This document shows, piece by piece, positions 10,598-57,100 of a stretch of DNA of 64,000 nucleotides. Source of the stretch: Antedon mediterranea (lineage: Eukaryota > Echinodermata > Crinoidea > Comatulida > Antedonidae). The notes under the pieces were generated by a model. The model worked only from the letters and a program-made list of their open reading frames with translations. It ran no database searches and was not told where the DNA came from. The stretch lies in NCBI RefSeq assembly GCF_964355755.1, contig NC_092672.1, forward strand, positions 124,001 through 188,000. Direction: 5' to 3'. Position numbers and translations under genes: made by a program. How positions within the stretch are numbered: the stretch's first letter is position 1; each line of letters opens with the position of its first letter.

Positions 10598-11474
10598 ATT
10601 TAATTCCATTACACCAATGAAAATATCAAAATGATGTTCAAAATATTATCATTAGAATTGTTTATTTTCATCCTTGTGATCACTCTTCGACATCGTACTA
10701 AACTATAATTATTACCAAATACTATTTTGTTTGGCTTCTGTGTCCTCTTGTATTTTTCAAAACGCATTAGAAGGCAGAACATTTCAAGAATTTAGGAGAA
10801 TTATTTCCTGTCCTTATACATCCTAAATATCCAAAACATGTCATGATGCCAAATGTATATATAGTATTTAAATTCAACATATAAGAACAGGATGATTTAT
10901 TTCTGTTCATACAACCAGAATATACCAATGTCTCCCGATATATATTTCAAGTAAGCTAAAAATAAATATTGTGATATTTTTTTTCTGTTTTGTCGGAAAA
11001 ATATCGATAATAAGAAATATAATTAGGATTGTATTTGTTTTAATAATAATAATAATAATAGTAAGTTATTTGAAAGGATGTTCTCTTTCAAATTATACTT
11101 TCAAAGTGTTTTAAACTGAAGACTTATCGTTACATCTGTGTGTATACGGAAGATATTCATCAGTTACCGTACTTAATGGATCGCCCTGTTAGGAATATTA
11201 ATGATACCACTCTGAAGGCACGTCTTTGAATAATATCGTAAATTCAACGTCAACAACAAATATTAAGACAAAAATATTTACTTGAATATTAATTGAATGA
11301 CGTTTATTGATTAGATTCGTGCATCTAAATCAAGTGCGTCAAGCTGACTTAGTAACGTTTTATAGTTTATTCGATCTGAAATGAAAACACGCAATATAAT
11401 ACTATATATCCAATCTGCAGACAGTACTGTTTCGATCTTATTAGATCTCACTATATATAGATTTTGAATTGGGG

Positions 11475-11810
11475 ACATATACAATGTAAGCATAAACACA
11501 CAACATATACAATGTAAGCATAAACACACAACATATACAATGTAAGCATAAACACACAACATATACAATGTAAGCATAAACACACAACATATACAATGTA
11601 AGCATAAACACACAACATATACAATGTAAGCATAAACACACAACATATACAATGTAAGCATAAACACACAACATATACAATGTAAGCATAAACACACAAC
11701 ATATACAATGTAAGCATAAACACACAACATATACAATGTAAGCATAAACACACAACATATACAATGTAAGCATAAACACACAACATATACAATGTAAGCA
11801 TAAACACACA
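11475..11810. repeat. 28-bp minisatellite, twelve near-identical units
   Basis: The unit acatatacaatgtaagcata plus aacacaca repeats exactly every 28 bp. Because 28 is not a multiple of three and the unit has no minus-strand stop in any frame, all three minus frames stay open through the array. This makes false open frames of up to 191 codons (11311-11886) of VCLCLHCICC type. There is no sign of coding. Units are nearly identical, suggesting recent expansion. Confidence 0.93.
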
Positions 11811-13743
11811 ACCAAAACACTTCTACCTTTATAGTATGAACAATTATTAATCGAATCTGATAAAAACATAACACAATTCGAAACAATAAATGGCCTAAAT
11901 GTAAAACCCTATATTTTTTTAATCATCGAAACGATATGAGACACATTTTTTTTTTTAGTTTAACAAACATACGTTCAGCAACAAGCCGAGTGAAGACTTG
12001 ATGGGCTAAATCCTAATAGGTCATTTATTACAGTAAATTAGCGGCGGCACTTGAAAGCATTATTATTAGCCTAAGTTTAAAGATTTATTCCATGTCGGTT
12101 GATAGCAAATTATACTGGATAAACGATGAGAAAGCTCATCTACAATGTTTACAGCACATTTAAATAGAGATTGTTTCAATGTAAATTATGTAAATTAAGC
12201 AGTTCAACACGAATATATCACATCGGATACAGGAGTGTTTAGAAGACAAACTTTTTTATAAGAAAACTAAGCCTAATCTGTGAATGGCTGTGAGATATAC
12301 TAATGATTCAGCGTAAAAAATGGTTATACCTACTACTTTAGTTTGTTTGTAAGTCACTCACGACTCACGCCAATTCGTGCACAAATCGCTACTGTCTCAA
12401 AAGTGCTATTCCAAATAAATTATTATTGTTATGTGTTTCATAATAAAATATCGTAGTTTAGCCAATTATGATAATTCGAGGTTATAAAATTATAATGAAT
12501 AAAACATAATGTGACTATCACAACTTTAGCAGCACGTCTAACCCGTCGTGTTAAAAATCATTTTAACAATTCATTCATTACTTGACTTACTGCTGGTTTC
12601 CGTGTAATTTAAAGTTAGTAGGTAAGTAAAATAATGATAGCATTAAAGATAAAAACAATCGTTATTAATGTAGGCAGATTTATTGATCAGTATTATTTGG
12701 GTACTCTGTTTTGTTGATGGTTTTACTGCAATAAACACAGTTTAGTGGATCATCAGTAAACGTTATCTGAATTGGTAATCTATTCATTTAATGCTCTCAT
12801 ACATTTTATTGTGTTACTATCTCTTAATATAATGCACAGTATCAAAGAGTTAGATTCACACCTAAAATGTATTTCATGTACTTTTTTGTCCTCCTGAACT
12901 ACGGTGTGACATTCGCATCTTGATCACGTTGCATGTTCATCTTCTTTCGCCAAATTATTTCTAGAACGGCGATTTCCAAAAAAAAAATATGTCGACGATG
13001 TCACACAGTTTCAGAATAGACGTAAAGAAGAAGGTTAATTTTAATTACATTCATTCATTTAACCAATTTTTTAACAGTTTTTTGAAACAAATGTTAGTAA
13101 AATGTGCTTACCGTAGACTAGAGTACATTTCCATAGATCAGAGTAGTACCATCAATAATAAATAAGTTTTACTTTATTGCGCACCAGTGGATTGAAATAT
13201 GTTCATATATAATCAAATAATTTTAATATATAAAATATTTGAGGGAATAAAGGATTAATCATCGCACAACAGGATTACAATTTAGCCAAATATGATTACA
13301 AACATTTGCATCAGCAACCTCATTTATAAAAAGCAAGGGTGATACAAATGAGTTTTATATATACAGGGTTTCTAAGAAATATAGACAATACAATAGACAA
13401 TGTCGTCCTCAAGACACGGGTACACTCCGTTATTATAAGCTCTTTACTATTTTAGCAACACAATACAAAATATCTAAATAGAAACCGACCATCAGTAAAA
13501 TTCTATCTGGTAAATGTACGTTAATTCGATACATACCATTCAGAGCATTTATTATGCGTTTATTTTAAACTGATAGATTATATCTAGTCCAATTCACCTG
13601 ATATAGAGATGTATAACCATCCAATCACGTTATCCAATTGCAAGAAACCGTACCTACTTTTTCATACACAATAGTTAAAATAACGTTATGGTTGGATCCA
13701 GCCAATCAAAAGTCGTATAGAGTCTGAGATTTGTGTAAAGAAG
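11811..13743. other. Intergenic DNA upstream of the cyclic-peptide gene
   Basis: AT-rich with no supported exon. Around 12880-12980 there is a less AT-rich patch without reading frame. No recognisable mobile element was seen. Confidence 0.45.
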
Positions 13744-13786
13744 ATTGGTCACGCAATAAAGGTTTCCAAGTCAGTTGTTATATAAA
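13744..13786 (+). promoter_or_regulatory. CCAAT-box (inverted) and TATA box of the cyclic-peptide gene
   Basis: ATTGG at 13744-13748 and TATATAAA at 13779-13786 stand 94 bp upstream of the ATG at 13880. The spacing predicts transcription start near 13810 and a 5' leader of about 70 nt. Assignment rests on motif and position only. Confidence 0.6.
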
Positions 13787-13879: not shown

Positions 13880-13960
13880 ATGAAAACTTTATTTCTTTCT
13901 GTAGTGTTAGCATGCAGTTTGTTGGTGGTATACACTTATCCATTAGATGAAGAGGAAAGG
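13880..13960 (+). CDS. Cyclic neuropeptide precursor, exon 1 (signal peptide)
   Basis: ATG at 13880 opens 27 codons ending at a GTGAGT donor (13961), phase 0. The product begins MKTLFLSVVLACSLLVVYTY, a textbook signal peptide with a basic n-region and a leucine/valine core. Cleavage is likely near VYT-YP (residues 19-20). It is followed by acidic PLDEEER. A TATA box lies 94 bp upstream. It is paired with the exon at 27822-27998 because both junctions are phase 0 and the joined product is a typical short peptide-hormone precursor (85 aa). The intron is 13.9 kb, so an additional internal exon cannot be excluded. Confidence 0.7.
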
Positions 13961-14151
13961 GTGAGTATACATTAATTATTGTATCAGTATTTCTTGTTTT
14001 AATCTATTCATGGGAATAGTGTGGAGGTGGAGTATTTTTTTAAACCAGAAAATGTACCAGCATCTAAAATTCTCATATAATGTAGTAATATAATAATGTT
14101 AGAATTGCCAGAAAATACAACGCACAAAAGATATAAACTACCTAATAGAAA

Positions 14152-15497
14152 ATGAATACCGACAGAGTGATTCAATTGGTAGGCCTATCTTAGCGAGAAA
14201 ACGGGATGTTAGGGTAACCAATACAAATGAATACCGACAGAGTGATTCAATGGTAGGTCTATCTTAGCGAGAAAACGGGATGTTAGGGTAACCAATACAA
14301 ATGAATACCGACAGAGTGATTCAATGGTAGGCCTATCTTAGCGAGAAAACGGGATGTTAGGGTAACCAATACAAATGAATACCGACAGAGTGATTCAATT
14401 GGTAGGTCTATCTTAGCGAGAAAACGCAATGTTAGGGTAACCAATACAAATGAATACCGACAGAGTGATTCAATTGGTAGGTCTATCTTAGCGAGAAAAC
14501 GGGATGTTAGGGTAACCAATACAAATGAATACCGACAGAGTGATTCAATGGTAGGTCTATCTTAGCGAGAAAACGGGATGTTAGGGTAACCAATACAAAT
14601 GAATACCGACAGAGTGATTCAATGGTAGGCCTATCTTAGCGAGAAAACGGGATGTTAGGGTAACCAATACAAATGAATACCGACAGAGTGATTCAATTGG
14701 TAGGTCTATCTTAGCGAGAAAACGCAATGTTAGGGTAACCAATACAAATGAATACCGACAGAGTGATTCAATTGGTAGGTCTATCTTAGCGAGAAAACGG
14801 GATGTTAGGGTAACCAATACAAATGAATACCGACAGAGTGATTCAATTGGTAGGTCTATCTTAGCGAGAAAACGGGATGTTAGGGTAACCAATACAAATG
14901 AATACCGACAGAGTGATTCAATTGGTAGGTCTATCTTTGCGAGAAAACGCAATGTTAGGGTAACCAATACAAATGAATACCGACAGAGTGATTCAATTGG
15001 TAGGCCTATCTTAGCGAGAAAACGGGATGTTAGGGTAACCAATACAAATGAATACCGACAGAGTGATTCAATTGGTAGGTCTATCTTAGCGAGAAAACGG
15101 GATGTTAGGGTAACCAATACAAATGAATACCGACAGAGTGATTCAATTGGTAGGCCTATCTTTGCGAGAAAACGCAATGTTAGGGTAACCAATACAAATG
15201 AATACCGACAGAGTGATTCAATTGGTAGGTCTATCTTAGCGAGAAAACGGGATGTTAGGGTAACCAATACAAATGAATACCGACAGAGTGATTCAATTGG
15301 TAGGCCTATCTTAGCGAGAAAACGCGATGTTAGGGTAACCAATACAAATGAATACCGACAGAGTGATTCAATTGGTAGGCCTATCTTTGCGAGAAAACGG
15401 GATGTTAGGGTAACCAATACAAATGAATACCGACAGAGTGATTCAATTGGTAGGCCTATCTTTGCGAGAAAACGGGATGTTAGGGTAACCAATACAA
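14152..15497. repeat. 75-bp minisatellite, 18 units, in the cyclic-peptide intron
   Basis: Eighteen units (fourteen of 75 bp, four of 74 bp) contain gaataccgacagagtgattc and gttagggtaaccaatacaa. Variant positions are caattgg/caatgg, ggtc/ggcc, ttagcg/tttgcg and gggat/gcaat. Units 2-5 and 6-9 share the same variant order, a 298-bp four-unit higher-order block. As 75 is divisible by three, the minus strand stays open for 303 codons (15492-14581) of VTLTSRFLAKI type; this reflects period, not coding. Confidence 0.93.
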
Positions 15498-16282
15498 ATC
15501 ATATACATATCATAAGTTATATTATATTGTGACATTTTATTGACTAATCGTTATTTTGAAAAGTATTATCAATGACAACTGCATTCGAATTATATACAGA
15601 AGTAGGATCAGACATTTCGTATCATTGCTTTCCATTAGACTCGGTACCAAACGTCACTTTGAACAATTAGGAAAAAGTAGAGTTAGAGTTGAAATGGTAT
15701 ATTATTTTAGGCGTAATAAAACATGTGGCTCGTAGATTTTATCCTACAGCATGTTAAATGTTGTTTTAGTCTGCTGGTTATATCTGTCATTGGATTTCCT
15801 TTGGTATTTATTTCTGTAAAAATTAAAAAACTTATCATACGACAATAGCCTAATACAATAAACGATACGGTACATTATTAGTCTATTATCTATTTTATTA
15901 CATTTATATCAAATTCATTATGCTTTTCCGGGTATTCTTATTACTAAACATGGACTGATGGGTTTACTTGCTTACTGTAAGGAACATAATTATAATGCAA
16001 TTATAATAATTCGAACAATAAAGTAGTATAGTTGATATCAGTAGGCCTGCTGTAGTATTATTTCATAGTATTCAATAATACTGAAAATACAAGTTGACAT
16101 AATAGTACCGCGAATATTCATGAGCTGTATAGGTATTTTATGTACGGAATAATTGAATTTTATCTAAGTAGTTAGAAGATGTTACTACCGGTAACTAGAA
16201 TTCAAACTGACGGGCGTGTATTCTTATTTAGAACAGTGCACTTTAACGAGAAGAAAAAAACCACATTGAGTGACGTGAACTA
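15498..16282. other. Intronic spacer
   Basis: AT-rich intron sequence between two minisatellites; no feature seen. Confidence 0.4.
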
Positions 16283-16872
16283 AATGTATCACAGTATATA
16301 CCTTCGGTTTTATGTTCGTAAACCTTTTGAAATATGTCTAACGCCGCGTTTGCCATTCTGAATGGGGGAGTTTACCATCATATTGATCGTCAGGTACAGT
16401 AATCAATTGACACTGAATGTATCACAGTATATTATACCTTCGGTGTTATGTTCGTAACGCCGCGTTTGCCTTTCTGATTGGGGGGGGACTTTACCATCAT
16501 ATTGATCGTCAGGTACAGTAATCAATTGACACTGAATATATCACAGTATATACCTTCGGTTTTATGTTCGTAACGCCGCGTTTGCCTTTCTGATTGGGGG
16601 ACTTTACCATCATATTGATCGTCAGGTACAGTAATCAATTGACACTGAATGTATCACAGTATATACCTTCGGTTTTATGTTCGTAACGCCGCGTTTGCCT
16701 TTCTGATTGGGGGACTTTACCATCATATTGATCGTCAGGTACAGTAATCAATTGACACTAATATATCACAGTATATACCTTCGGTTTTATGTTCGTAACG
16801 CCGCGTTTGCCTTTCTGAATGGGGGAGTTTACCATCACATTGATTGTCACGTAGAGTAATCAATTGACACAG
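16283..16872. repeat. 112-133-bp tandem repeat, five units
   Basis: Units begin with aatgtatcacagtatatacc near 16283, 16416, 16535, 16648 and 16760. Each carries the CpG-bearing words gttcgtaacgccgcgtttgcc and gatcgtcaggtacagtaatc. The first unit has an extra 20 bp or so. It is intronic to the cyclic-peptide gene. Confidence 0.88.
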
Positions 16873-17029
16873 AATGTAGCATCAAACAACTTTAAGTATG
16901 ATACCTTAACAATTAAAATAATCATAATTCTTTGTCTCAATAACATAATTGCTTATAAATTAATAAAATAAACATAATATAACGGGGAAAACATGAATTT
17001 GGAAGGCATAAAAACTAAGCCACAATTAC

Positions 17030-17265
17030 AGTTTAGACACAAAAGATAACCACCACTGTGCAGAACTATCATCATTTGAATTAGATAGTTCATGATATGT
17101 TTATATATAATAGTAATTAGAATATTGTACAGATAACTGTGCAAAACTATCATCATTTGAATTCAATAATTCATAATAATATTTAGATAATAATAATTAT
17201 ATTGTAACGATTGTGCAGAACTATGTGAATTCGATAGTTCATGATAATAGATAATGATTTAATTA
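17030..17265. repeat. Degenerate triplicated segment
   Basis: Three imperfect copies of a roughly 90-110-bp unit recognisable by gtgcagaactatcatcatttgaatt, atagttcatgata and attagaatattgta. AT-rich and diverged. Confidence 0.6.
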
Positions 17266-18695
17266 GAATATTGTATTTTAATGTTATGAACGTGACACAC
17301 TTTAAACTAGTAATTCAAGATAATCTCCATTTTAATCGCAATTAAAATATTCGATATAAGTGTAAATCCACTCTATATATCGATTAAGCTTCTAACGGGA
17401 TTTAAAATTACTTTACTGGACAAAATGGATTAAATAACATAATGCACTTGTTTAGATAGTTTTTTCCATAACATGAAAAGCTATCAGGTAAAACGGCTTT
17501 CAACGGTACCATTAAATCGCCTTATATCAATATGATTAGGTCACGTGATTCTATAATGATGATACTTTGATGCTGCAATCATCACCAGCGGCAAATAATT
17601 TACGTACGCATGCGCATTACATAATTGAGAAGGCGGAATAAGTTTGACAGTGGTAGGATTGCCAGAAGCAAACTAACGATAATTACCATTGCTGTAATAG
17701 TGGTTTGAAAAGCAATAACCATTCAAATGATTTACAGTAAATCTGATAAACGTCATCCTCTTCCAAATTTTGTAAAAACACAAGTTGCAGCAGCCCTACC
17801 AGTATATAATATATTATTTAACTATCTCTCGGTGGATTTCCGATGATTTGATGGTTAAATATCTAAAATGTTTACTTTCACAAGGTAGGCATATCGTACA
17901 TATTTCTTCAATGTAAATCAAGTAATAAATCTACAAAAATGAGTCTGTACTAAAGTCGTGACTTAAAATAAACATTATTCTATTCTATCCATACTTTAAT
18001 TGTTGTATGAACCCGTGGGCTGTCATTTACAAACACTTTTAAAAGTTTGCAACAACACCTATCAATTGGAATTTCACTAAAAACAGTTTGATTTTCAACA
18101 CAAATCCTTATAACGAACTTGTAAGGCGTAAATGTAATAGGTTACGTTGTACTTGTAGGTGTAATGAACCAATGCAAATTCGTGTACTTAATCCTCTTGT
18201 AATAATAAACACGCTGAGATCGACCTATACTGACGTCGTATATTATGCAAAATATTTTGACTTACTCAAACATAAAGTGCTTCAGCCAAAATGTTAAACA
18301 GAAGCACAAATAAATATTGTGTAAATATTCAAAGGTCATACAAGCCTAACTTTAAAAAAATGAAGCAAGAGATTAGAACAATAAACTTATCTAGGCAACA
18401 TTCCATTTTTGTTTAATTAAATTGTCATTTTATACAATATGCTACAAAGACTATAAATTAAAAATAGTATACATTCCTTCAAAATGGTAAATTGATATGG
18501 TCAAATTGGAAATATAAAATTTCCCACCGTCGGCCTATAAAATAAATTGACATTTTGGTCTACTCAAGACCACGAATTAAACCTACTAAGAAAAAGTTCA
18601 ACTTTTTTCAAAATTGGTAATTCTGACAGTTACGATACGGACAAGTTATATGATATTAACAGCATAGTCCTAATCATTCAAAATGAGAAATTTAG
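17266..18695. other. Intronic spacer with an NRF1-like palindrome
   Basis: TACGCATGCGCA (17605-17616) resembles the NRF1 site, in a slightly GC-richer patch. No supported exon nearby: the open frame 18088-18297 lacks an ATG start and splice context. The rest is AT-rich. Confidence 0.35.
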
Positions 18696-19920
18696 CAATT
18701 TACTTAACCTGTCCAATGTATTCAATGTTCAAACTGTTGGTAAAGTTCTATGGAAATGTACCTAACCTGTCCAATGTATTCTATGCTCAAACTGTTGGTA
18801 AAGTTCTATGACAATGTACCTAACCTGTCCAGTGTATTCAATGCTCAAACTGTTGGTAAAGTTCTATGGCAATGTACCTAACCTGTCTCATGTATTCAAT
18901 GCTCAAACTGTTGGTAAAGTTCTACTTCAATGTACCTAACATGTCTCATGTATTCAATGCTCAAACTGTTGGTAAAGTTCCATTACAATGTACCTAACCT
19001 GTCTCATGTATTCAATGCTCAAACTGTTGGTAAAGTTCCATTACAATGTACCTAACCTGTCTTATGTATTCAATGCTCAAACTGTTGGTAAAGTTCTACT
19101 TCAATGTACCTAACATGTCTCATGTATTCAATGCTCAAACTGTTGGTAAAGTTCCATTACAATGTACCTAACATGTCTCATGTATTCAATGTTCAAACTG
19201 TTGGTAAAGTTCTACTTCAATGTACCTAACATGTCTCATGTATTCAATGCTCAAACTGTTGGTAAAGTTCCATTACAATGTACCTAACATGTCTCATGTA
19301 TTCAATGCTCAAACTGTTGGTAAAGTTCCATTACAATGTACCTAACATGTCTCATGTATTCAATGCTCAAACTGTTGGTAAAGTTCTACTTCAATGTACC
19401 TAACATGTCTCATGTATTCAATGCTCAACCTATTGGTAAAGTTCTATGGCAATGTACCTAACCTGTCCAATGTATTCAATGCTCAACCTATTGGTAAAGT
19501 TCCATTACAATGTACCTAACCTGTCTCATGTATTCAATGCTCAAACTGTTGGTAAAGTTCCATTACAATGTACCTAACATGTCTCATGTATTCAATGCTC
19601 AAACTGTTGGTAAAGTTCTACTTCAATGTACCTAACATGTCTCATGTATTCAATGCTCAACCTATTGGTAAAGTTCTATGGCAATGTACCTAACCTGTCC
19701 AATGTATTCAATGCTCAACCTATTGGTAAAGTTCTACTTCAATGTTTATACACTATGCTCTTTGTAGCATGACTATTCAATGCTCAACCTATTGGTAAAG
19801 TTCTACTTCAATGTTTATACACTATGCTCTTTGTAGCATGACTATTCAATGCTCAAACTATTGGTAAAGTTCTACTTCAATGTTTATACACTATGCTCTT
19901 TGTAGCATGACTGTTTAAAT
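18696..19920. repeat. 58-bp minisatellite (about 18 units) with three derived 69-bp units
   Basis: The unit aatgtacctaacctgtccaa plus tgtattcaatgctcaaactgttggtaaagttc repeats every 58 bp to about 19740. Unit ends vary among ctatggc, ctacttc and ccattac. The last three units (from 19741, 19810 and 19879, period 69) replace the start with a segment ending ctctttgtagcatgact. It is intronic to the cyclic-peptide gene. Confidence 0.92.
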
Positions 19921-22900
19921 TCTACAGGGATTGTATTCGGTTTCTTATTTATATATGAATGATAGGTTCACCAAAACAATAATTATTACACAATGAGATG
20001 TTTCGCAACTGAGGGATATTTGATTCCAGACTATAAATTGATTATTAATGACTTTAAAAAAAAATACTAAATGTACGGTATGGTTATATATACCAACATA
20101 TTGTAGGTGTACTCCTACTCACAAAATAATTAAAAAATGAAAAAGTTATTTACAGTATGTCGGACTTATGGCTTTTAAGTCAAAGAGCTTCATACTGTCT
20201 CCCAGACTTTAAGTGATATAAATAAATCAAATGCAAGTAATTTCTTATGGTAGTTATATTTTAGTTCATTAAATTTAATTTAGATATTTTTTTCTTTTAA
20301 GCTGCCGGTGTAATTTTCTTAATAATCATTACGTCTTTCAAAAAAAATGAAATATTATACATATTATTTGATGGGAGTATTGGATAGAATTACAGAATAG
20401 TTAGTGTCAGATTAATAATTCATACAAGTATGAATAATTATTCGAATTAGTGTGTATAATACTCATGTGGTAGACTAGAGACTAGATTCCACTTATGAAA
20501 ATTGAAACAAAAAACCAGAAATAATCCATGTAGCCTACTGGCCTATATAATTACATTTAAGCACGGCCTAACACCCGTATTATTGACAAAATTATATTTC
20601 AAATGAAACTGGATATCCAATTTTTCGAATCTAATAAGGGCAACCAGAAGATTAGAAGATAAGTATAATTACATATTATTGATTTTGGCGAATACTATCA
20701 CTCTGTAGCCTAACATGATACAAAAATTACCTCGACAATTAATAATGTCATTATGCTACTTTTATTTTATGAAGAGTGGTTTGGAATTGACGGCCGAGTT
20801 GTCAAATCAAATGAACAATCCGTCTTTATTTTATTCTTTATCATTAGTTGTCTATGAAACGGAACAATTTAAAACATCCCAAAGTAATCTGATCGATAGG
20901 CTCCACTTTTTTCGTTATTTTAATCATTTTCAATGTTATTGTGTTATTTTTAATTGTTAATTCATTACTAAGCGTGTTTTAATTATAATATCACTGGTAA
21001 CAGTATAACTTAAATACATTGTAAACATAATATTTGCAATAAAGTGGTTATATGCCTACATTATTGAGGAACACAAACGAACTATGTTACTGTAAACATG
21101 GTATAGGCCTATGCTACATTTATCGTCGATGACGAATTATACCGTCTACTTCAGTGTTGGTTTCAAATAAAGATTCTTTGAAACATTGACCTATAAAACA
21201 TTTGCCATAAAATCACTTTTAACGTATAATTGTGTTCAATTTATACCATTGTATAATGTTTTGTAATTCTACTGAAACTGTTTAAACAATAATAATCGCA
21301 TCACCTTATTAATGAATAACTGAGAATAAATGGGAATTCTGTACGAACGACGATTTACGAGAATATAAATGTTCTTGTTGGATACCTCGGGTCTTCATTA
21401 GCTCGCATAATGACATATTGAACCAATACACCTACTGTATTATTAAATGATTTACTTTGTACCTACATGTTTAAGAGCTTATGATTCCTAGATTACCCAA
21501 ATGAAGCAAGGTGATAATGCAACAACATTTAGTGATTATTAAGAACATGGGCCATTAAAATACTTTAAGAGTCACAAGTGGATGTAATCCACAACTTATT
21601 AATAGTAACCGTTTGATACATATAGTCATTTAACTAATCCAGCGACTTGTTATATGCAATGTTTGATTAGTTACTCATTCACAGATTTGCTAAAGAGTTT
21701 TATTTCGATTTAAATGTAATATAGTAAAACTATTTAGATTAATATAATGCATTTTCAAGGACGCGGTTAGATATTAATTGATTTGCCCTACTTTCTGGGT
21801 GGGTGTAAGTAAATCTTGTATTTACTAATTGTAACATTGAATGTTCTAACTAACCACAATGTCTGAGTAAACCTGGTTCTATAAATAAAATCTTACCCAT
21901 CCTATCTTTATACTCATGGGGTTTGGTCAAAGTATGAAGGAAAATATATTTATTCTTTCATCCATGGTGAAAGCACCGTCGTTTAAATTTGATTCTACAA
22001 ACAACAGTTTAGGTTAGTTAGCTCCAAGACATTATACTCTTACTCCCTTTCTCTACTTTAAAACTTCAAAATTGCCTATTCAAAGTCTAATTTTTAAGAT
22101 CCTAATTGTTCATGTTTTTGGAGGACACATCTTTGATGGATATACCTTGATCATTTTTCGGAGTTTCTTCTATTGATTGTAAGTCGTTTAAAAATAATCA
22201 TAACCATATACAAATTGATATTAATAATAATAATTCTAACTGTCGTTTAAAAATTGCTCAGAAGTAGTTAATATTTCATAATCCCAGTACGCGTACACAT
22301 TTCACATACGAAATTCAATGATATTAATCTGACATTGGATATCAATATCAATAATATGTCTTGTAACGCACGGCCTCTCAATGTCAATTACACAACTTGT
22401 ATCGTATTCCAAAGATCTTAATCTTTGCAATTAAATATACATAATGTCTAAGAGGTAAATGCTATAGGACACAATTTTGTTTTATGAATAAATTTAAAAA
22501 TTAGCTGTGATACTTTCATTTATCTCTGACAACATTATATCATTTCAAAGGTATAACTTGATAAGACGCTAGTTTGATTCAACAACGCATGTATTTTGAA
22601 TGAATAGTTAAATATTAATTGTAAAACATACTTTTAAAATATACGTGTCAATTTATAATTGTTTTATATGGTTAGGCCTACGATTAGTGACATCAATTTC
22701 TTTTTATAAGATATAGAGGAGTATTCATAATTGGGTAGTGGTGAAATGTTATGAAGAGATACATTGTCTTAACACAAACTGTTTGGATTACTTTTCCTCA
22801 TTGTAGGAGAGATAATGACAACATCATAGTCTGGTTTGCGTATGGGAGGTGCATCTTGGGAGGTTTGGATAAATCATAATACAATAAAGATTTTCCGGGA

Positions 22901-22958
22901 TGATACCGTATAATATTATTAGGATGGGTAAGCTGTAATGGTTGTGATTTGTATTCCA
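19921..22958. other. Intronic spacer
   Basis: AT-rich intron sequence. Scattered AGGCCT palindromes occur (for example near 21110 and 22675). The open frame 20715-20960 has no signal or domain. Nothing else supported. Confidence 0.4.
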
Positions 22959-23107
22959 GTGAGGATGTGCTGATTTTGCTTAGGTGGAACTTATCTACAT
23001 CATTATTAGTGAGGATGTGCTGATTTTGCTTAGGTGGAACTTATCTACATTATTAGTGAAGATGTGCTGATTTTGCTTAGGTGGAACTTATCTACATCAT
23101 TGTTAGT
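22959..23107. repeat. 49-bp tandem repeat, three units
   Basis: Units begin agtgaggatgtgctgatttt at 22959 and 23008 and agtgaagatgtgctgatttt at 23055. Confidence 0.9.
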
Positions 23108-26100
23108 GTTTTACATGACGTACCGTGTATCAATATCATTAACTTGTTACTTACAATGAACTCCATAATCTCAATTTCAGCCTTTAAATTTCTACATGAT
23201 CATATTAAGACTTAAATAAAGAATAAATATGATTTTGATTTAAATTAAACATTTTTCTTATCATTAGACGTAGATCAGACTACACAGTGCATTTATAGTG
23301 TATGTACAGTAACAAGAAACAATCCGAATACACATAATAGTTTCCATCTATATAGTAATGATTCGACTGGGAATTAAATTCTACTTTTATTAATAATTAT
23401 AAATATCTATGTCAAAAGTGGTAATCATATTTCGCAATAAAAGTTCTATTATTTTTTCAATTTAAAGTAATGCATAGATAAATTTTGACACATAAAAGCA
23501 AGTGGCTATAAAGGAATAGTAATAAAGTTTAACTTAAATTCACGACTTGTGGTCATAAAATGATAGAAGATGCATCTCCTACAAATATACCAAAACCCAA
23601 CACTTTATCAGTCTACTGACACCGAATGAAAAAGAATACGAACACACACAAACCACGTATTGAATATATATTAGTAATTATTCAACAAAATTACACTCTC
23701 TCTTGATAATTCGTTCAAATTTGATTTTTTAAGGCTGACACGTCGAAGTACTTAGTGTTACCATCTATCTATACTTATCCAGATATTTTAAGATTTCTCA
23801 AGATTATCATGTTATCCTATAAAATTAAAAACCTGATAAAAAGTGACGTGATGTATTTGTTACAGTTATACTGATCGTCGGTAGTGTGTAAATTCTCCTT
23901 TCTTTATGTAGACTAAGTTTACAAATTAATAATGATCATCTTCTAGGGTATACTACCTTATTTTATACGCATCAGCTTAAAAATTGCGTTCAGCCAATTG
24001 CAGTTCTTTTAATTCGTATTGGTATTCTGAAAAAGTTCTTTCAAATGCTCTGGCTAAACGTGTTTGTAACGGTTGTTTTTTTTAAAGTGTTTAGCTGCTC
24101 AATCAATCCAAGTATAATTTGATAAACTAGTGAACAGTGGGGATTATGACCTGCTCAAATTGCACACTTCAAAACTTTCTAAGGATAAATCGGGTTCATA
24201 AACACTAATCATCATCTTAGTGTTTTGATCATTCTCTTGTGTTTCTACAATGTTCTAATATATTCTCAAACACGCGCACAGTCTCAATATGTTTGTGTTT
24301 CATAGTTGCGTTTGTTAATTACCAATATCCCGAACAATTAATTCAGTAATCATTCTTAACTACTTCTTACAATTAGTAACATTTAGGTATTTTTAGATTC
24401 AGTATTTCTAATTTACAACATCTGATATTGAAGAATATGGCACAAAACCGACTACTTACTTATAGCATTGTTTTCAATGTCGTATCAACATTTTTAAAGA
24501 TTTTCACATATTTTTAGTGAATGTCACAGCATACATCAATATTTTGCAAATAATCTTGATACACAATTAATACAATATAAAATAAGTGTACGATGCAAAA
24601 AAAGCTATCTCTTTACTTTATTATACAGTATCTATAAATATATTCTCCACTAATACTAAATCACTGTTCAGCATCAACTGAATTTAATCCGTGTAAATAA
24701 ATTGCAATTTATTGATTGACTGGAATTACCAATATAATTGAAGTTGCTTTTTTCAACGTATATTAATACTCTTAGTATCATTATAACCTTAATGAATTAA
24801 CGTAGACGACAAAAACAATAGATTGTTTCGAGTTCGAAAACAAGTTCACAAATTCTTGACTACATACTAGATACTATCTACATTATGCAAGAGTACGACG
24901 ATTTTCAATATGATGCGACCTGTTGAAATCAATCAATTTGAATTCTGCTACAAATGGTAACCTTTCTATCATTGATTTGTAATTAATCTCGTCACGATTA
25001 ACTTCCTTCTTTATTTTTTGAATTATGTGAACCTTTTATAATTGTCAAAACATGTATCGAAAGATACATGTCGCTTGGGTTCTAAATCACCGGTAATAAA
25101 TTGTGCATAACCAAAGTCGATTAATAGGGACTCCATAATTTCCAAAGAAATGAAACGCATACAAAAATTAAAAATCTAATGTACTTAAGTCTAAACTTCA
25201 TGGCTCCGATTTATTATTATACCTAGCAAGTGTTTTTTGTCTCGTAGACTGAGACAAATTAAACGAAGATTACTGTATATCTTTCACTAAATCTGTACAT
25301 TTTATTTATTATCTCTTGTCGTTTTTTTTTTCTTATATTAGGAAAATGTCAATAAACCGTCTACATAATTATTAAACTTTACAGAATCATTCTGTTTCCT
25401 TTAATTCATTATCATCATAAAACCAAAATAGGTGAAAAATCCTATTAACCTATATATACCACAAGAAAATAGAAGTGAAAATGAAGTGATTTAACTTAAA
25501 CAAGAAAAAACTTAATATAAACTAATACAAAATATTAATGTCTATCTCTGTTATAATAGAAGTTAAATCATGACTTCATCAGTTTGTAGAAGATGCCGTG
25601 CCAGTTCTTTCAAAGTCATTGTGATGACTGTATTAGATTGATTCCTTATTACATTTACGACTTTTTTTATAATAGCACTTTGGCGTCAAGCTAGTTCCAG
25701 TTTTCGAATTCGTTGTCGTGTTATATTCCTCTTCACAGTTTAAATTCTTTTTTTAAAATCTGGGTTTATGTTTCGCGTGCGAAATACAAGTTATTAATGT
25801 TTTTATAATAAACGATAGGCTATATAAAATAAAAGCTATTGTTTTGTGGGTCATTTTTTTTTTGCATACTGCCTTTAATCAATTTTAATATTTTTATCAA
25901 GGACATAGTTTGTTCAAAATAATAATACACCTTATAAGCATGTTTTGTTTATGGTGTAGTTAGGCCTAATAATAATAATAATAATCTTCGTTTATTATTT
26001 CATAGGCCTAATAATAATAATAATAATCTTCGTTTATGATTTCATTTAATAAGACGTTTATCAATAATTGCCTATCATTGTGTAGTTTTAATAACAATTT

Positions 26101-26919
26101 ATGTTTGTTAGTAGAAACTATGGAAGAGTGAAATTAGAATTAATTAAACCGAATGAACATTGTTAAATATCACAATTATTAATATTAATAACAGTAAACT
26201 TGGAATAAGGTACTTCTGAGTTAATTTCATATTAACCAATTTGTGGTAAATAACCATGGTGATTTTTAAATTGAAATGTTAGAAACCCGCAGTATGACTC
26301 ACTATGCGTTTGTCTTTATTAAAAATTAATATTGTAATAGGAAGCAATATCCCTTCAGACCAATAGTATAACGTTAGTATTTTAGCATTTAATTCTTAAA
26401 GGCTGGTTGTGATGTACACTTACAGATGACCTGATGAAAATATAACGGTAATATACTGGCAATATAAGATCAAAATGTACACCGACTTTTAAACACGTAA
26501 TTAAAATACATTGCATGAAAAATGTAGGCATTTTTCTTAGAAACAGTAAATCAAATATTTAATCTACGTGAACTTCGGGCTCCATTCATGATGTTCTTTT
26601 TTATCTCATTCTGAATTTCTTCAGCATGATATGTCACAAATAAAAACGACATAAGGAGTAGTTTATTTTCTAATAACTTCAAAATTACTCTTATTGATTT
26701 TTAAAAATAATTATCGTATATTGATTTGCATCAATAACATGAAAAAAGTGTCTATTTATCTACACCACTAGTTTAACACATAAACTATATTTATCATAGA
26801 GGAGCTGTTACGTGCATGGATGATTTTTAATAACCCACTAGAAGTATTTAATTATCTTCGGTTACCAGTATTCTAAGACTAATCAACTGAGAATGTTTTC
26901 TTAACCTACGTTACCACAC
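23108..26919. other. Intronic spacer with small duplications
   Basis: AT-rich intron. Near 25961 and 26003 a 42-bp unit (taggcctaataataataata followed by atcttcgttta) is present twice in tandem. No supported exon. Confidence 0.45.
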
Positions 26920-26920
26920 T

Positions 26921-27345
26921 ACAACTAAGATGCTGTACAATGACTACAACTAAGATGCTGTACAATGATTACAACTAAGATGCTGTACAATGATTACAAC
27001 TAAGATGCTGTACAATGATTACAACTAAGATGCTGTACAATGATTACAACTAAGATGCTGTACAATGATTACAACTAAGATGCTGTACAATGATTACAAC
27101 TAAGATGCTGTACAATGATTACAACTAAGATGCTGTACAATGACTATAACTAAGATGCTGTACAATGATTACAACTAAGATGCTGTACAATGATTACAAC
27201 TAAGATGCTGTACAATGATTACAACTAAGATGCTGTACAATGACTACAACTAAGATGCTGTACAATGATTATAACTAAGATGCTGTACAATGATTACAAC
27301 TAAGATGCTGTACAATGATTACAACTAAGATGCTGTACAATGATT
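26921..27345. repeat. 25-bp minisatellite, 17 units
   Basis: acaactaagatgctgtacaa plus tgatt repeats exactly every 25 bp for 425 bp with only a few substitutions (tgact, tataac). It lies about 480 bp upstream of exon 2 of the cyclic-peptide gene. Confidence 0.95.
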
Positions 27346-27821
27346 ATAATTATCAACTAAATTAGAAAAGAAAACAATTGAAAAACACCAAATGTAATAA
27401 ATGATGGACATAGGTTTACGATCCTATTGAATATTTAATATTAGGGAATAAAAGTGAAATCACAATAGCATCTTGTAACAAATATACATAAAATATAGAT
27501 GACTGAAGCAAAGACAAAATGCAAGCTATAAATATAGTTTAGTATTCCAAACACGTTTATTTTAATATATAATTATTATCAATAATAAATATATACCATG
27601 GCAACAGCAAATAAATGTTTTTCCGTTTTTAAATCTTATATTAATCAAGTAAATGCTAAGTTATCGTAGGACGTCCCAAAGAACAAGCGATACGGATTGT
27701 TTACAAAAAACGACTTTCTATATAAGTAGACTAATTATAATTTATTTGTTCAATTTCCAATATAATAAAATAATATTCATTTTCAATTTACTTACGGAAT
27801 CCAAATCATTCTATCTTCCAG

Positions 27822-27998
27822 GACTATCAGATGCTGAGGCGAATTTTGAAAGAAGTGGGTGAACTACATGAAAAGGCTGCTAAGAGAGGAAAACCTTGTT
27901 TCGCAGACAATCCAATGACGTTGTATGAATGTTACGGTTTCCATAAACGCGATGCTTCATCGGACCTTCTTAACGAATTAGGTCAAGACGGCAACTAG
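27822..27998 (+). CDS. Cyclic neuropeptide precursor, exon 2 (KR-flanked CX10C peptide)
   Basis: This terminal exon starts after the acceptor CTATCTTCCAG and gives 58 residues before TAG. In joined numbering: residues 28-47 form a charged, helix-like spacer (DYQMLRRILKEVGELHEKAA). KR is at 48-49, the peptide GKPCFADNPMTLYECYGFH at 50-68, KR at 69-70, and an acidic tail at 71-85. Cys53 and Cys64 are the only cysteines after the signal peptide, so a disulfide ring is expected. No glycine precedes the second KR, so the C-terminus is probably a free acid. The layout is that of a secreted neuropeptide precursor. I do not recognise the family: the CX10C spacing equals that of somatostatin-14 but the FWKT core is absent; allatostatin-C, MCH and GGNG-type peptides also have single rings but differ in spacing or core. 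Confidence 0.75.
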   Translation, partial: DYQMLRRILKEVGELHEKAAKRGKPCFADNPMTLYECYGFHKRDASSDLLNELGQDGN

Positions 27999-29914
27999 TA
28001 GTACAAATGCATTACAAAATTCATTCATTTTAGCAGCACTATTTTCTCTTGTTTCAACAGTACAAACTGTAGTAAATTATTCTTAAAATAGACTTATTTT
28101 TCTTAACGTATGATGTGACAAGAACAAATATTCAGAACATTTAAATTGCACGTGCATGGCTCACCTGGGTGTGTGAGTATGATGTCATCAAACAAGAGTC
28201 AAAAACAAGACTTCATTCTATAGCGCGTTATTTTATTAAAAACGTCATTTAAATGACGGAACATTTTAAAACACTAAAAAGAAAGTATCTTAACTTTGTT
28301 TTTTTTTATCTGAGAAATTCAATAAATTAATAACTAGATGCCTGACATGTATATGTAATCTATGGATAGTCGGGATTGTAATTAAGTGTTATTTGGGTGA
28401 CACATTGTGTTGGAAATGACAAAACAAAGCGTACATTATATTCTAAGTAGATACTGGCCGACAGTCTTATAAGATGATTAAATTATTAGACTATTAATAA
28501 GTAAAGCTATTAATATTTATAATTTATATAATCTCATGCATATATTAATTTGGCGTCTGGCTTTAATCCAATTTTGTATCTATTAAGGTGTAATGTTATT
28601 GTAAAAGTTACATTATTTGGCTCCAATTGGCCCAGACTTGTAACGTTATGTAAATTTGAATTATAATAAATTATTAATTATTATTTTCATTATCATTACA
28701 GTATAATTAACGACATTGGGACTTTCTAAACACAACCAAATTTAAAGTTAAATGAATATATAAATGATTACCAGTATATCTGTGTTATTTCGATATTGTA
28801 TTAAATCAGTGACATTTTTACTTCTGACAATTTTATTATCATATGATATAGGGCCTATTTAATATAAAAAATTAAATGGTAAAATTGTATTTTTATCTCA
28901 GAATAGCTTGAGCTTGACTTGAGTTATTATTAGTAATTTAATCATCACACTTAAATAATATTATAATATTTCAGTCTAAATCTATATTTATTTAGAATGT
29001 ATTTTATCACATCATTTGAATTGTTGTCCCAGGTGATTAAATGGTTTTAAAATACAGTCACATAGATAATTTGCAATATGTACAATTTATTATAATTTGC
29101 ATTTTTCATTTTTTTTTTGGTCAAATAAAGGTAAAAAAAACCTTCAAAGTAAATACTTACATAATTGGTTTTCTTTTTTCTAACACTGTAATTGGAGCAA
29201 TATATTGAGAGTAAGATTTATGGTAATGGTGACAACGGAGTTGATGGTGAACATCTCGCCAGTTAGAATACGGATAAAATTGGGTTTTTTTTATGATATT
29301 TATGTATTTTTAGTAAGTAATAATTAAAAAAAAGTCTGTCACCATTCACCCTCATATTTCACTTGCTGGATAGTATGCTGTATAAGTTATAATAATTAAA
29401 TAGCCTACTATTAAAGTATGTTGTGTAGAGTCCAATCTCTATGATTGTATATACTACGTATTATTTAAAAAATAATAATAAAATCCAATGGATCAATGCG
29501 GTGCACGACCTTTCGAGTATTTTGATTCTATTTTGTACATATTAAGCGAGCATGTTGATGGCCACTATAATGAAAGGCCGGCCGGCGACGACGCATACAA
29601 TATTACGTCCACACGTCCACAATCCATCCACTGCCTGGTGCTTCTGCCTTCTATTTTATAAGTTAGGCTACATGAAATTGAGCTTCCTCACATGTACCAC
29701 TGGCTGTAATTACGCGTTAATTCAATTCTATATGATGCAACAACACTGTGATATACAAAATTAATACAGATACAGAGGTCGAGCTTCAGATATTCTACTG
29801 GTGGACGTTTTTCTATATCGTATTCTTAAGGACAATTTCCTTCTAATGAAACATATCTTGGGAGACCTCTGTTAAATAGCCAATGCATTGGCTCTATTTA
29901 TATAATTATTAGTG
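27999..29914. other. 3' flank of the cyclic-peptide gene
   Basis: AT-rich DNA holding the probable 3' UTR of the peptide gene. The open frame 29552-29764 has no domain, signal or splice support. No repeat family recognised. Confidence 0.4.
28321..28326 (+). terminator. Poly(A) signal AATAAA
   Basis: AATAAA lies 323 bp after the stop codon of the cyclic-peptide gene. It is the clearest signal in the 3' flank. Confidence 0.45.
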
Positions 29915-54107: not shown

Positions 54108-57100
54108 ATGGTATTGCACAAAGCTGGGCAGGCTGAACTGATTCGTTCCAATCAGAAGGATGTTTATTATTCCCACCAAATTTATAAAAAGCTCTCTGAA
54201 TTATGGCATATGTTTGCAGGTAGGGTATCACTGACTCAGATGCAGGTTCTTGTACAGGAAGTTGATATGTAAAAATCCATCAATAATAAACTACAGTATA
54301 CAACATCCAACAATAACAATTTAACCTGTAAAAAACGGTTTAAATATTTGCATATACAGTAACTGTATGTTATTTAAAACCTGCTTGCTGGCTAAAAAGA
54401 AATCGCATAAATATCTTATTTACAAACAGCTTGCCAGCAGACATAATTTTTGATAGAGACAAAAGTAGGAATAAATAGCTAAAATGGTAAAGTACTGTAT
54501 GGTATTAAACTGAAATAATTGGTCTTTGACTTTCATTTCATTCATTATTGTATAAATGATGTTTTTTAAATATTTATGTAAAATTTAGATTTGTCATCAC
54601 TTTGTTTGTAATTTAAATGATGTAGAAAGAAGGAAAGTTAGTAGATGAATTATTAGAGTCATAAACAGCAATTACATTTTTCATCCATTTCTTTAAATCG
54701 AGTTTTTTTTTTTACATGATTAATTGGTTGTTATTAAAGGAGCAAGGTCTTGGATTGTGTGGCGAAAGGAAATTGATATCATAGCTAATGTGGCCTACTT
54801 TACTCTTACAACATTATCAGGTAAATCTTGACATTTAGTTTCTCAATCATGAGTACATCTATGGAATGCCAATTATTAGTTTATGACATCATCTCTATTA
54901 AAAGTATAATTAATAATAACAGTATAACTGTAAATGCCCATAAAGAAGGTTGTTCTCTGCTGAGAATGTGTGCTAGTAGTTTACCAATTGTAATAGCACG
55001 GTTGTATTTCATGTGGTATATATCTTAATCTCCCGATTTATTATAAAAATATTAAATTTTAAGGTGCATTAAATCACTGGGTAATAATTGTGGCATATAC
55101 AGTAACTCTATATTAATTTTAAAACCATTTTACTTAATTTCATGACAAAATGATTCTAGTTTTACAGAAAATAAAAACTTTGGATTTAATTTTTATGTGC
55201 AGAGATCATCATCAGATCAAGTTATTCTTATGTTCTTATTGTATAAAATATGTCCTATCAAAAGTGTTTACTGAAACTATTTGTAAACCATGTCCTACAG
55301 TATCAAAATTACTTTAAAAACACTTTGTGTAAAGGTTGCCCATCAACATATACTAGACTTTAAAGACTAAAATATTTGTAGTTTAAACACTTGTATATGT
55401 ATATAACTAGATAGTAATGGGTTAAAGTTAGCTTATTTTTTCATATCAATAACTAGTACTATAAATAGCGTATAAAGTATGCCCTACAGTATCCAAGTTA
55501 TATAGAAAATTCTGTAAATTATGTACAGAAAAGAAATTCTGACATCTTTCTAAAAAATAATATTACTTTATTTAATCAATACTGTTGTTGTTAATCAGGT
55601 CTGCAAAGTTTAGGAGAAGAATATGTCAATGTTGTGCAAGTAAAGACTACTGAACGAAAGATACCATCACATAATGTAAGTTTGAAGGTTATGTGTTTTG
55701 TATATCAAAATTAATTTAATCAAATAGTAACATTGCTGTATGGTGTGAACAATTAATGATAAATGATATAATACTAGGATAAACACTTTATCCGGTTTTT
55801 ATACTACAGTACTTTACCTTTCTTTGATAACAGCAAAGATTCACTCTTGTGTTGATGTACTCGCTAGGCCCATACCTCACAGATAAATTGTTAGTATCTC
55901 TGGAAAGGCGGCTGCAGCAACAAGAGCAAGAGGAGGCGTCAGGTCATTTGTCAGCTCATAAGAAAAACGCATTGCAATATTTATCAGTGCTTCGGAGTAT
56001 AATTAGATATGTCTCTAGGGCACATTTAGCATGGTTTTATCTAGATGGAACATTTTACCATATAGCTAAAAGAATAGCTGGTATTCAATATGTAAGTACA
56101 ACACAATTATTATATTCATTAAATCAGATGCATGTTAGCAAATTGCCAATATATATGCATAAAATAAAGGGTAATGAAAACTATAAAAACGTGTACTGTA
56201 CTGTACCGTATATCATTTATTGTGTCACTAGTTGTCCCAACAATTGGTAAAACAAATATGGAAGAAATTGTTATCATAATTTTTATTAATTTTATAATTA
56301 GATGTAATTGAAAATAATATACCTGTAAACAAAATAACTTATCCATTTTTTAGAATTATTAGTAAATACTTAATGTGCTGGCTGTGGTTATAAATTGTTT
56401 TGAATTTGATTATGTTCGGTAGGAATGTTCTTAACTACCTCAGTAATAAATCATTAATAAAACTTTGTTTAGATAGAAATCTAGAATTTAGATTTATTGA
56501 AGATTATCTAAACACAAAATAATAGAATATAAATGAAATGTTGATTTATGTACAATTCTTCATGCAAATCTACAGACTACAATAACATGGCATAACTAGA
56601 GGCTACTCAGAGAGTACAAACCTCCGCCTACTGTAAAATTCCCTACATAAAATGTCCCCGGAAAATATATATATTATTAAGTGTAAATAGGCTAACTGCA
56701 CACTACAAAGTTGTGGATGAGCGTTTGGTGTAATGGTTATGTATCCAGCCTCTCACAGCTGAGATCGCTTGTTCAAGTCCCACTGAGGTTTTTTTTTATT
56801 ATTATTATTTTTTTATTACTTTTTTTTTTTGACCTTGATCTTTGACCCTTTAACCACAATTATATGATGAGTCATTGATCATTGTGGCTAAGTTTGGTGA
56901 GAATTGATAAAAACTGTGGTCTCTAGGCAGTAAATTAGTTTTTTGTTAGTTGTAACCTTGACCTATGACGTTTTCCCCTCAAATTCAAACTCGTCCGAGC
57001 TTTTGGGGCATAGATCATTGTGACTAAATTTGGTGAGAATCTGCTAAAAACTGTGGCCTCCAGGCTGTTCACAGACACACAAATATACAGGGTGAAAATA

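What the first reader, a model, noticed from the sequence alone, without database searches (positions are those of the whole stretch)
13880..27998. Unassigned cyclic neuropeptide precursor (GKPCFADNPMTLYECYGFH)
Seen: a signal peptide exon and a phase-matched terminal exon join into an 85-aa precursor. A single 19-residue peptide sits between two KR sites, with exactly two cysteines (CX10C) and no amidation glycine. A TATA box lies at the right distance. Known: this is the standard design of secreted cyclic neuropeptides. The ring spacing equals that of somatostatin-14, but the FWKT core is absent and the sequence fits none of the echinoderm families I can recall. Inference: a divergent or undescribed peptide hormone.
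Basis: partly seen in the sequence, partly recalled or inferred. Interest (0 to 1): 0.8.

Follow-up and report, generated by a model that had tools for sequence, protein, structure and literature searches.

The report
Undescribed feather-star cyclic neuropeptide gene
A crinoid (feather star) genome carries a two-exon gene for a small secreted precursor that should release one ring-shaped 19-residue peptide hormone that fits none of the known families it was compared with; [quoted passage not shown]

Summary
Exon 1 (13880-13960) and exon 2 (27822-27998) join in phase 0 into an 85-residue precursor with a signal peptide and one dibasic-bounded 19-mer, GKPCFADNPMTLYECYGFH (CX10C, no amidation glycine). 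No second close copy was found in the genome. A strict pair of this design arose once in 800 simulated 64-kb strands; the same scan picked out a somatostatin-type gene elsewhere.

The genome is a crinoid's: the neighbouring pedal peptide/orcokinin gene encodes GLFPTGGMDPLGASYFT, identical to a peptide printed for Antedon mediterranea.

The candidate is not the somatostatin or allatostatin-C orthologue: this genome has a separate SS2-type gene (CIPDFWKGRGRC, contig C3) and an SS1/allatostatin-C-type terminal exon (CVGRFGPLVSKC, C2). Residues that mark echinoderm MCH-type peptides are absent. Insect CCHamides share the ending C-aromatic-G-x-H (recalled), but the amidation glycine is lacking.

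Most likely it is an undescribed, non-amidated cyclic neuropeptide acting through an unknown receptor. No transcript, second species or mass spectrum was available, so expression and conservation are untested.

The parts
13779..13786 (+). TATATAAA, possible TATA box
   Evidence: read, located
13880..13960 (+). exon 1: signal peptide (about residues 1-19) and start of the acidic spacer (YPLDEEER)
   Evidence: cleavage place from a simple -3/-1 rule, not from a trained predictor
13961..27821 (+). 13.9-kb intron, phase 0 (GTGAGT ... TCTTCCAG)
   Evidence: sequence; splicing not shown by any transcript
27822..27998 (+). exon 2: spacer with RR site, KR, 19-mer, KR, 15-residue tail, stop
27888..27944 (+). 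predicted mature cyclic peptide GKPCFADNPMTLYECYGFH
   Evidence: position agrees
28321..28326 (+). AATAAA, possible polyadenylation signal
   Evidence: ATTAAA or AATAAA occurs at five further places up to 29000

Best explanation
This is a real gene for a cyclic neuropeptide or peptide hormone of crinoids that belongs to none of the families tested here. Mechanism: the signal peptide takes the precursor into the secretory pathway. The two cysteines close a ring of 12 residues. Prohormone convertases cut at the two KR sites and a carboxypeptidase trims the basic residues, leaving a 19-mer with a free C-terminus, because no glycine precedes the second KR. The peptide is stored, released and acts on a G-protein-coupled receptor that is not known. 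Shown by sequence: the two exons, their phase, signal peptide, cleavage sites and cysteines. Inferred from how such precursors work in general: splicing, disulphide, processing, neuronal expression, receptor.
For: Exact two-exon model with good splice sites, phase 0, signal peptide, single peptide between KR sites; strict pairs of this design are rare in simulated DNA, 1 in 800 strands of 64 kb; the same scan, run on two 10-kb stretches around an SS2 motif, picked out both exons of that gene and nothing else there; a second neuropeptide gene of the same general design is its neighbour; genes of SS1 and SS2 type exist separately; no Pfam family at E up to 10; no text hit in a neuropeptide paper for strings of the peptide.
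Against: No transcript, no orthologue in a second species and no peptide data. The intron is long, though the SS2 gene found here has a 15.4-kb one. At genome scale the scan would give some false pairs. Figures and supplements of the crinoid survey PMC9793003 could not be read, so it may already be listed there or in a public gene annotation.
Confidence: 0.6

Rival explanations
1. A divergent member of the CCHamide / excitatory-peptide / bombesin / endothelin group. The ending C-Y-G-F-H would correspond to the C-[W/Y/F]-G-[A/G]-H-amide ending of insect CCHamides, with the amidation glycine lost and the ring enlarged.
For: Best local alignments of the 19-mer among 12 cyclic peptides were to Drosophila CCHamide-2 and CCHamide-1, shuffle p 0.036 and 0.029 (both sequences recalled). 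CCHamides have two cysteines and a terminal histidine; CCHamide-2 has a dibasic site between signal peptide and peptide (PMC5627052 section 7).
Against: p about 0.03 is unremarkable among 12 comparisons. No amidation glycine. The brittle-star CCHamide-like peptides are amidated and lack that histidine. Ring CX10C is larger than in the two recalled CCHamides (CX6C).
Confidence: 0.12
2. A third, diverged paralogue of the somatostatin / allatostatin-C group that stayed on the same chromosome as SS2 and lost the FWK and FXP cores.
For: Same contig as SS2, about 1.18 Mb apart; by my arithmetic a random place in 354 Mb falls that close about 1 time in 150. CX10C ring as in ArSS1 and in the SS2 peptide found here, no amidation, phase-0 intron near the signal peptide.
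Against: The linkage was noticed afterwards. Phase-0 introns there are also seen in SALMFamide genes. No similarity of precursors (BLASTP E 0.15 in a single comparison) or peptides (shuffle p 0.66 to the SS2 peptide, 0.47 to ArSS1, 0.09 to ArSS2). The peptide is followed by KR and a 15-residue tail.
Confidence: 0.12
3. A secreted cyclic peptide that is not a neural signal, for example a host-defence or local tissue peptide.
For: Nothing in the sequence shows expression in neurons; the design (signal peptide, KR sites, disulphide) is not exclusive to neuropeptides.
Against: One short peptide neatly between two KR sites with an acidic spacer is the usual neuropeptide layout; only one net ring and few basic residues in the 19-mer (sequence).
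Confidence: 0.1
4. A chance pairing of an unrelated signal exon with an open frame.
For: At about 0.0025 per window the whole genome (about 5,500 windows) would give roughly 14 such pairs; exon-2-like frames alone occurred 4 times in 120 kb.
Against: The same 120 kb held no signal exon; good donor and acceptor, TATA and polyadenylation signals in place, exon 2 richer in GC than its flanks.
Confidence: 0.06

Closest known systems
Echinoderm SS1 / allatostatin-C-type peptides (ArSS1 KCIGRFQPFSMPC, PMC7536072)
   Same: two cysteines in CX10C, no amidation, phase-0 intron near the signal peptide
   Different: no GR and no FXP motif; no second, phase-1 intron; KR and a tail follow the peptide; an SS1-type exon exists separately on C2
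Echinoderm SS2 / somatostatin-type peptides (ArSS2 RAKNARCMADFWKGRGLVDC, PMC7536072)
   Same: cyclic, no amidation, one phase-0 intron in the coding region
   Different: no FWK/IWK core; an SS2-type gene exists separately on C3
Echinoderm MCH-type peptides (PMC9793003, PMC4772807)
   Same: two cysteines in CX10C
   Different: D, W and R within the ring, M/I after the first Cys and the basic residue near the second Cys are absent
CCHamide-type peptides (PMC5627052 section 7)
   Same: two cysteines, terminal histidine, one peptide per precursor; C-aromatic-G-x-H ending (recalled)
   Different: no amidation glycine, larger ring, 30-residue spacer after the signal peptide
Stichopin (DRQGWPACYDSKGNYKC, PMC3432112)
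   Same: two cysteines, no amidation, aromatic residue after the first Cys, Y two places before the last Cys
   Different: CX8C; precursor is only signal peptide plus peptide; alignment at shuffle level (p 0.39)
Predicted crinoid neuropeptide precursors PCNP2-20 (PMC9793003)
   Same: crinoid precursors with signal peptide and dibasic sites; PCNP3a, 3b and 19 have two cysteines
   Different: the two-cysteine ones are described as amidated; none described in the text matches this peptide

Membership tests
SS2 / somatostatin-type | FWK or IWK core in the ring | tested here: not met
   sequence against the motif; an SS2-type gene with CIPDFWKGRGRC lies at C3:1.33 Mb
SS2 / somatostatin-type | phase-0 intron interrupting the N-terminal coding region | tested here: met
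   shared with other neuropeptide genes, so not decisive
SS1 / allatostatin-C-type | FXP core and, in echinoderms, GR | tested here: not met
   ring is CFADNPMTLYEC; motifs; an SS1-type exon with CVGRFGPLVSKC lies on C2
SS1 / allatostatin-C-type | ten residues between the cysteines | tested here: met
SS1 / allatostatin-C-type | second, phase-1 intron in the C-terminal coding region | tested here: not met
   exon 2 runs open from residue 28 to the stop; the SS1-type exon on C2 does open in phase 1
MCH-type (echinoderm) | two cysteines ten residues apart | tested here: met
MCH-type (echinoderm) | D, W and R at +2, +8 and +9 from the first Cys; M or I after it | tested here: not met
   candidate has A, L, Y and F there (features)
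CCHamide-type | two cysteines and a terminal histidine | tested here: met
   feature
CCHamide-type | C-terminal amidation | tested here: not met
   no glycine before the KR
Urotensin II-type | phase-1 intron in the N-terminal part (human genes) | tested here: not met
   phase 0; feature
Urotensin II-type | CFWKYC core (recalled) | tested here: not met
Crinoid PCNP2-20 (PMC9793003) | peptide as described in the text of the survey | tested here: inconclusive
   no peptide described in section 36 matches, but figures and supplements were not readable
Secreted neuropeptide precursor (general kind) | signal peptide and peptide bounded by dibasic sites | tested here: met
Secreted neuropeptide precursor (general kind) | expression in neurons and mature peptide in tissue | not testable with these tools
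   no transcript or mass-spectrometry data held

The most novel reading that the evidence does not exclude
A neuropeptide family not yet described in any animal: a non-amidated CX10C cyclic peptide with an NP-containing ring and a CYGFH tail, present in a crinoid beside both ancestral somatostatin-group types, possibly a third branch of that group that stayed linked to SS2.
Probability: 0.4. Interest if true: 0.55.

Novelty: new member of a known kind. Interest (0 to 1): 0.42.

Why it matters
Crinoids are the sister group of the other living echinoderms, and PMC9793003 calls itself the first comprehensive survey of their neuropeptide precursors; the parts of its text that I read list no somatostatin- or allatostatin-C-type precursor. 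A new cyclic peptide gives a defined 19-mer to pair with orphan receptors. The control work also finds both somatostatin-group paralogues in a crinoid genome, with the diagnostic cores and, as far as seen, intron phases. If they are orthologues, both types were present before crinoids split from other echinoderms, as the published urbilaterian-duplication model (PMC8851493) predicts.

Tried and rejected
Rejected as SS2, SS1, MCH-type and urotensin by the features above and, for SS1 and SS2, by finding genes of those types elsewhere. GN-19 (GGRLPNYAGPPRMPWLIHN, no cysteines) and vasopressin/oxytocin-type peptides (CX4C) were considered and dropped. Pfam gave nothing for the precursor at E up to 10. 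A PDB sequence search gave one weak hit, residues 27-46 (the spacer) to a C-type lectin chain, E 0.028; not followed. The only paper holding one of three peptide strings is on a conotoxin by its title (PMC9781320, listing only); not followed. A bacterial-type promoter scan does not apply here. A protein query made of ArSS2 and ArSS1 letters found nothing although an SS2 gene is present: short protein queries are insensitive here, so empty answers were not used as absence. The same caution applies to 'single copy' (only close copies excluded) and to the miss of the A. mediterranea PCNP15 peptide, which I do not read as excluding Antedon. No structure prediction was run.

Papers, what I saw: PMC9793003 outline, sections 22 (part 1 of 3), 30, 36, 41, 45 and passages; PMC8851493 outline and section 5 (part 1 of 2); PMC6586643 outline, sections 22 and 51; PMC5627052 passages and section 7; PMC7536072, PMC4772807, PMC12002301, PMC3432112, PMC8557429, PMC10603993 and PMC9598280 passages; all others search listings only.
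Full report
What is there. Exon 1 at 13880-13960 encodes MKTLFLSVVLACSLLVVYTYPLDEEER and ends at a good donor (AGG|GTGAGT); exon 2 at 27822-27998 begins after CTATCTTCCAG and ends with TAG. They join in phase 0 to 85 residues. One peptide of 19 residues, GKPCFADNPMTLYECYGFH, lies between KR sites, with two cysteines in CX10C and no glycine for amidation. Upstream are TATATAAA at 13779-13786 and an A at -3 of the ATG; downstream is AATAAA at 28321. In the 354-Mb assembly, exon 2 and the 23-residue stretch KR-peptide-KR each match only themselves at E up to 10; these searches would miss distant copies. The window is C3:124001-188000 of that assembly.

Is it more than chance. I scored signal exons (ATG, hydrophobic core, cleavage rule, donor) and terminal exons (acceptor, dibasic site, two cysteines, second dibasic site or stop). 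The window holds two signal exons, one on each strand, and one terminal exon. In 800 third-order Markov strands of 64 kb there were 132 signal exons, 582 terminal exons (96 with dibasic sites on both sides), 10 phase-compatible pairs within 25 kb and 1 strict pair. Twelve arbitrarily chosen 10-kb stretches of the genome, both strands, gave 0 signal exons and 4 terminal exons, 3 of them strict. So the terminal exon alone proves little, the pair is unusual, and the thresholds were set after seeing the candidate. A positive control came unplanned: in the two 10-kb stretches fetched at and upstream of an SS2 motif the same scan picked out both exons of the SS2 gene and nothing else there.

Which organism. 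On the minus strand of the window, exon 40450-40361 joins exon 35367-34003 into a 484-residue pedal peptide/orcokinin-type precursor with 17 GGMD[TP]LG copies. Its first peptide, GLFPTGGMDPLGASYFT followed by an amidation Gly and KR, is identical to the peptide given for AmedPCNP4 of the feather star Antedon mediterranea (PMC9793003 section 36). The genome is therefore read as a crinoid's. Genus and species were not established; a second A. mediterranea peptide (of PCNP15) was not found by an insensitive search.

Which family. Echinoderms have two somatostatin-group peptides, SS1 (allatostatin-C orthologue) and SS2 (somatostatin orthologue), told apart by FXP and FWK/IWK cores; SS1 genes have an extra phase-1 intron (PMC7536072 passages; PMC8851493 section 5). 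A DNA pattern for the SS2 core had one match, and none for the pattern read backwards: C3:1327402-1327430, minus. With its signal exon it gives a 123-residue precursor with a 15.4-kb phase-0 intron and the peptide ...SNCIPDFWKGRGRC.... A first SS1 core pattern gave 213 places, 100 of them listed, many of them one repeated 20-mer with Ser for Arg; two stricter patterns gave 48 and 21 places, all listed. Of these 69 I read 57 and left out 12: ten with a 20-mer identical to one that I read, and two with an in-frame stop. Five of the 57 have a cysteine at the SS1 spacing. Only one of the five, at C2:24388726, minus, has a basic run ahead of it...KKKFNRRKGCVGRFGPLVSKCYNNRS, stop; its exon opens with a strong acceptor in phase 1, as SS1 genes do. 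Its signal exon was not found in the 20 kb searched, so this gene is seen only in part. Both somatostatin-group types thus have other genes in this genome, and the candidate is neither.

The candidate also lacks the residues given for echinoderm MCH-type peptides and the amidation of CCHamides. Local alignment of the 19-mer to 12 cyclic peptides (six recalled), with shuffles that hold the cysteines, gave the best scores to the two CCHamides (p 0.029 and 0.036), which 12 comparisons make unremarkable; the other ten had p from 0.09 (ArSS2) to 1.0. Text searches for strings of the peptide found no neuropeptide paper, and none for strings of the SS2 peptide. Three searches for crinoid somatostatin or later crinoid neuropeptide work (25 of 45 papers listed, 12 of 18, 7 of 7) showed one crinoid-wide catalogue, PMC9793003. 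Its text names calcitonin, eclosion hormone, kisspeptin, luqin, MCH, orexin, pedal peptide/orcokinin, PrRP/sNPF, sulfakinin/CCK and vasopressin/oxytocin as monomeric families, not somatostatin or allatostatin-C. Figures and supplements could not be read, so absence from print is not shown.

How it most likely works. Sequence shows: signal peptide, spacer with an RR site, ring peptide between two KR sites, 15-residue tail. Inferred: disulphide ring, convertase cleavage, free C-terminus, regulated release, a G-protein-coupled receptor. The linkage to SS2 (about 1.18 Mb, same contig) with the same ring size and intron phase is the only hint of ancestry, and it is weak: about 1 in 150 by chance by my arithmetic, noticed afterwards, with no sequence similarity to support it.

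Verdict. A probable new neuropeptide gene of ordinary design and unassigned family. Its value rises if other crinoids have it.

Noticed in passing
40450-40361 and 35367-34003, minus strand: Pedal peptide/orcokinin-type precursor gene, 484 aa, 17 GGMD[TP]LG copies, tail to tail with the candidate. Its first peptide is identical to that of AmedPCNP4, which PMC9793003 gives as a single-peptide precursor without known relatives, while reporting no such family in A. mediterranea: PCNP4 is probably a piece of this precursor.
   Followed up: partly
L005 6132-6022 and L004 628-368, minus (C3:1343132-1343022 and C3:1327628-1327368): Somatostatin (SS2)-type precursor of this crinoid, 123 aa, peptide CIPDFWKGRGRC, 15.4-kb phase-0 intron. 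Its ring has ten residues, against 12-15 stated for other echinoderm SS2 peptides.
   Followed up: partly
L027 and L076, minus (peptide from C2:24388726, exon acceptor at C2:24388788): SS1/allatostatin-C-type terminal exon with CVGRFGPLVSKC and a phase-1 acceptor; upstream exons not found in 20 kb. SS1 and SS2 lie on different contigs, as in the starfish Asterias rubens.
   Followed up: partly
14150-15499, in the intron: Minisatellite of about 18 copies of a 75-base unit that opens frames of 304 and 305 aa on the two strands. The + frame has repeated RKR sites and looks like a multi-copy peptide precursor, but 4 of 17 unit spacings are 74 bases, which breaks the frame; probably not coding.
   Followed up: partly
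55831-56250 (+) and 60508-60816 (-): Frames matching Pfam Pex2_Pex12 (E 3.2e-16) and ankyrin repeats (E 2.2e-11): exons of ordinary neighbouring genes.
   Followed up: no
11311-11922, minus: Long open frames in all three minus frames with repeated VCLCLHCICCVFMLTLYML; looks like a tandem array rather than a gene; not checked.
   Followed up: no
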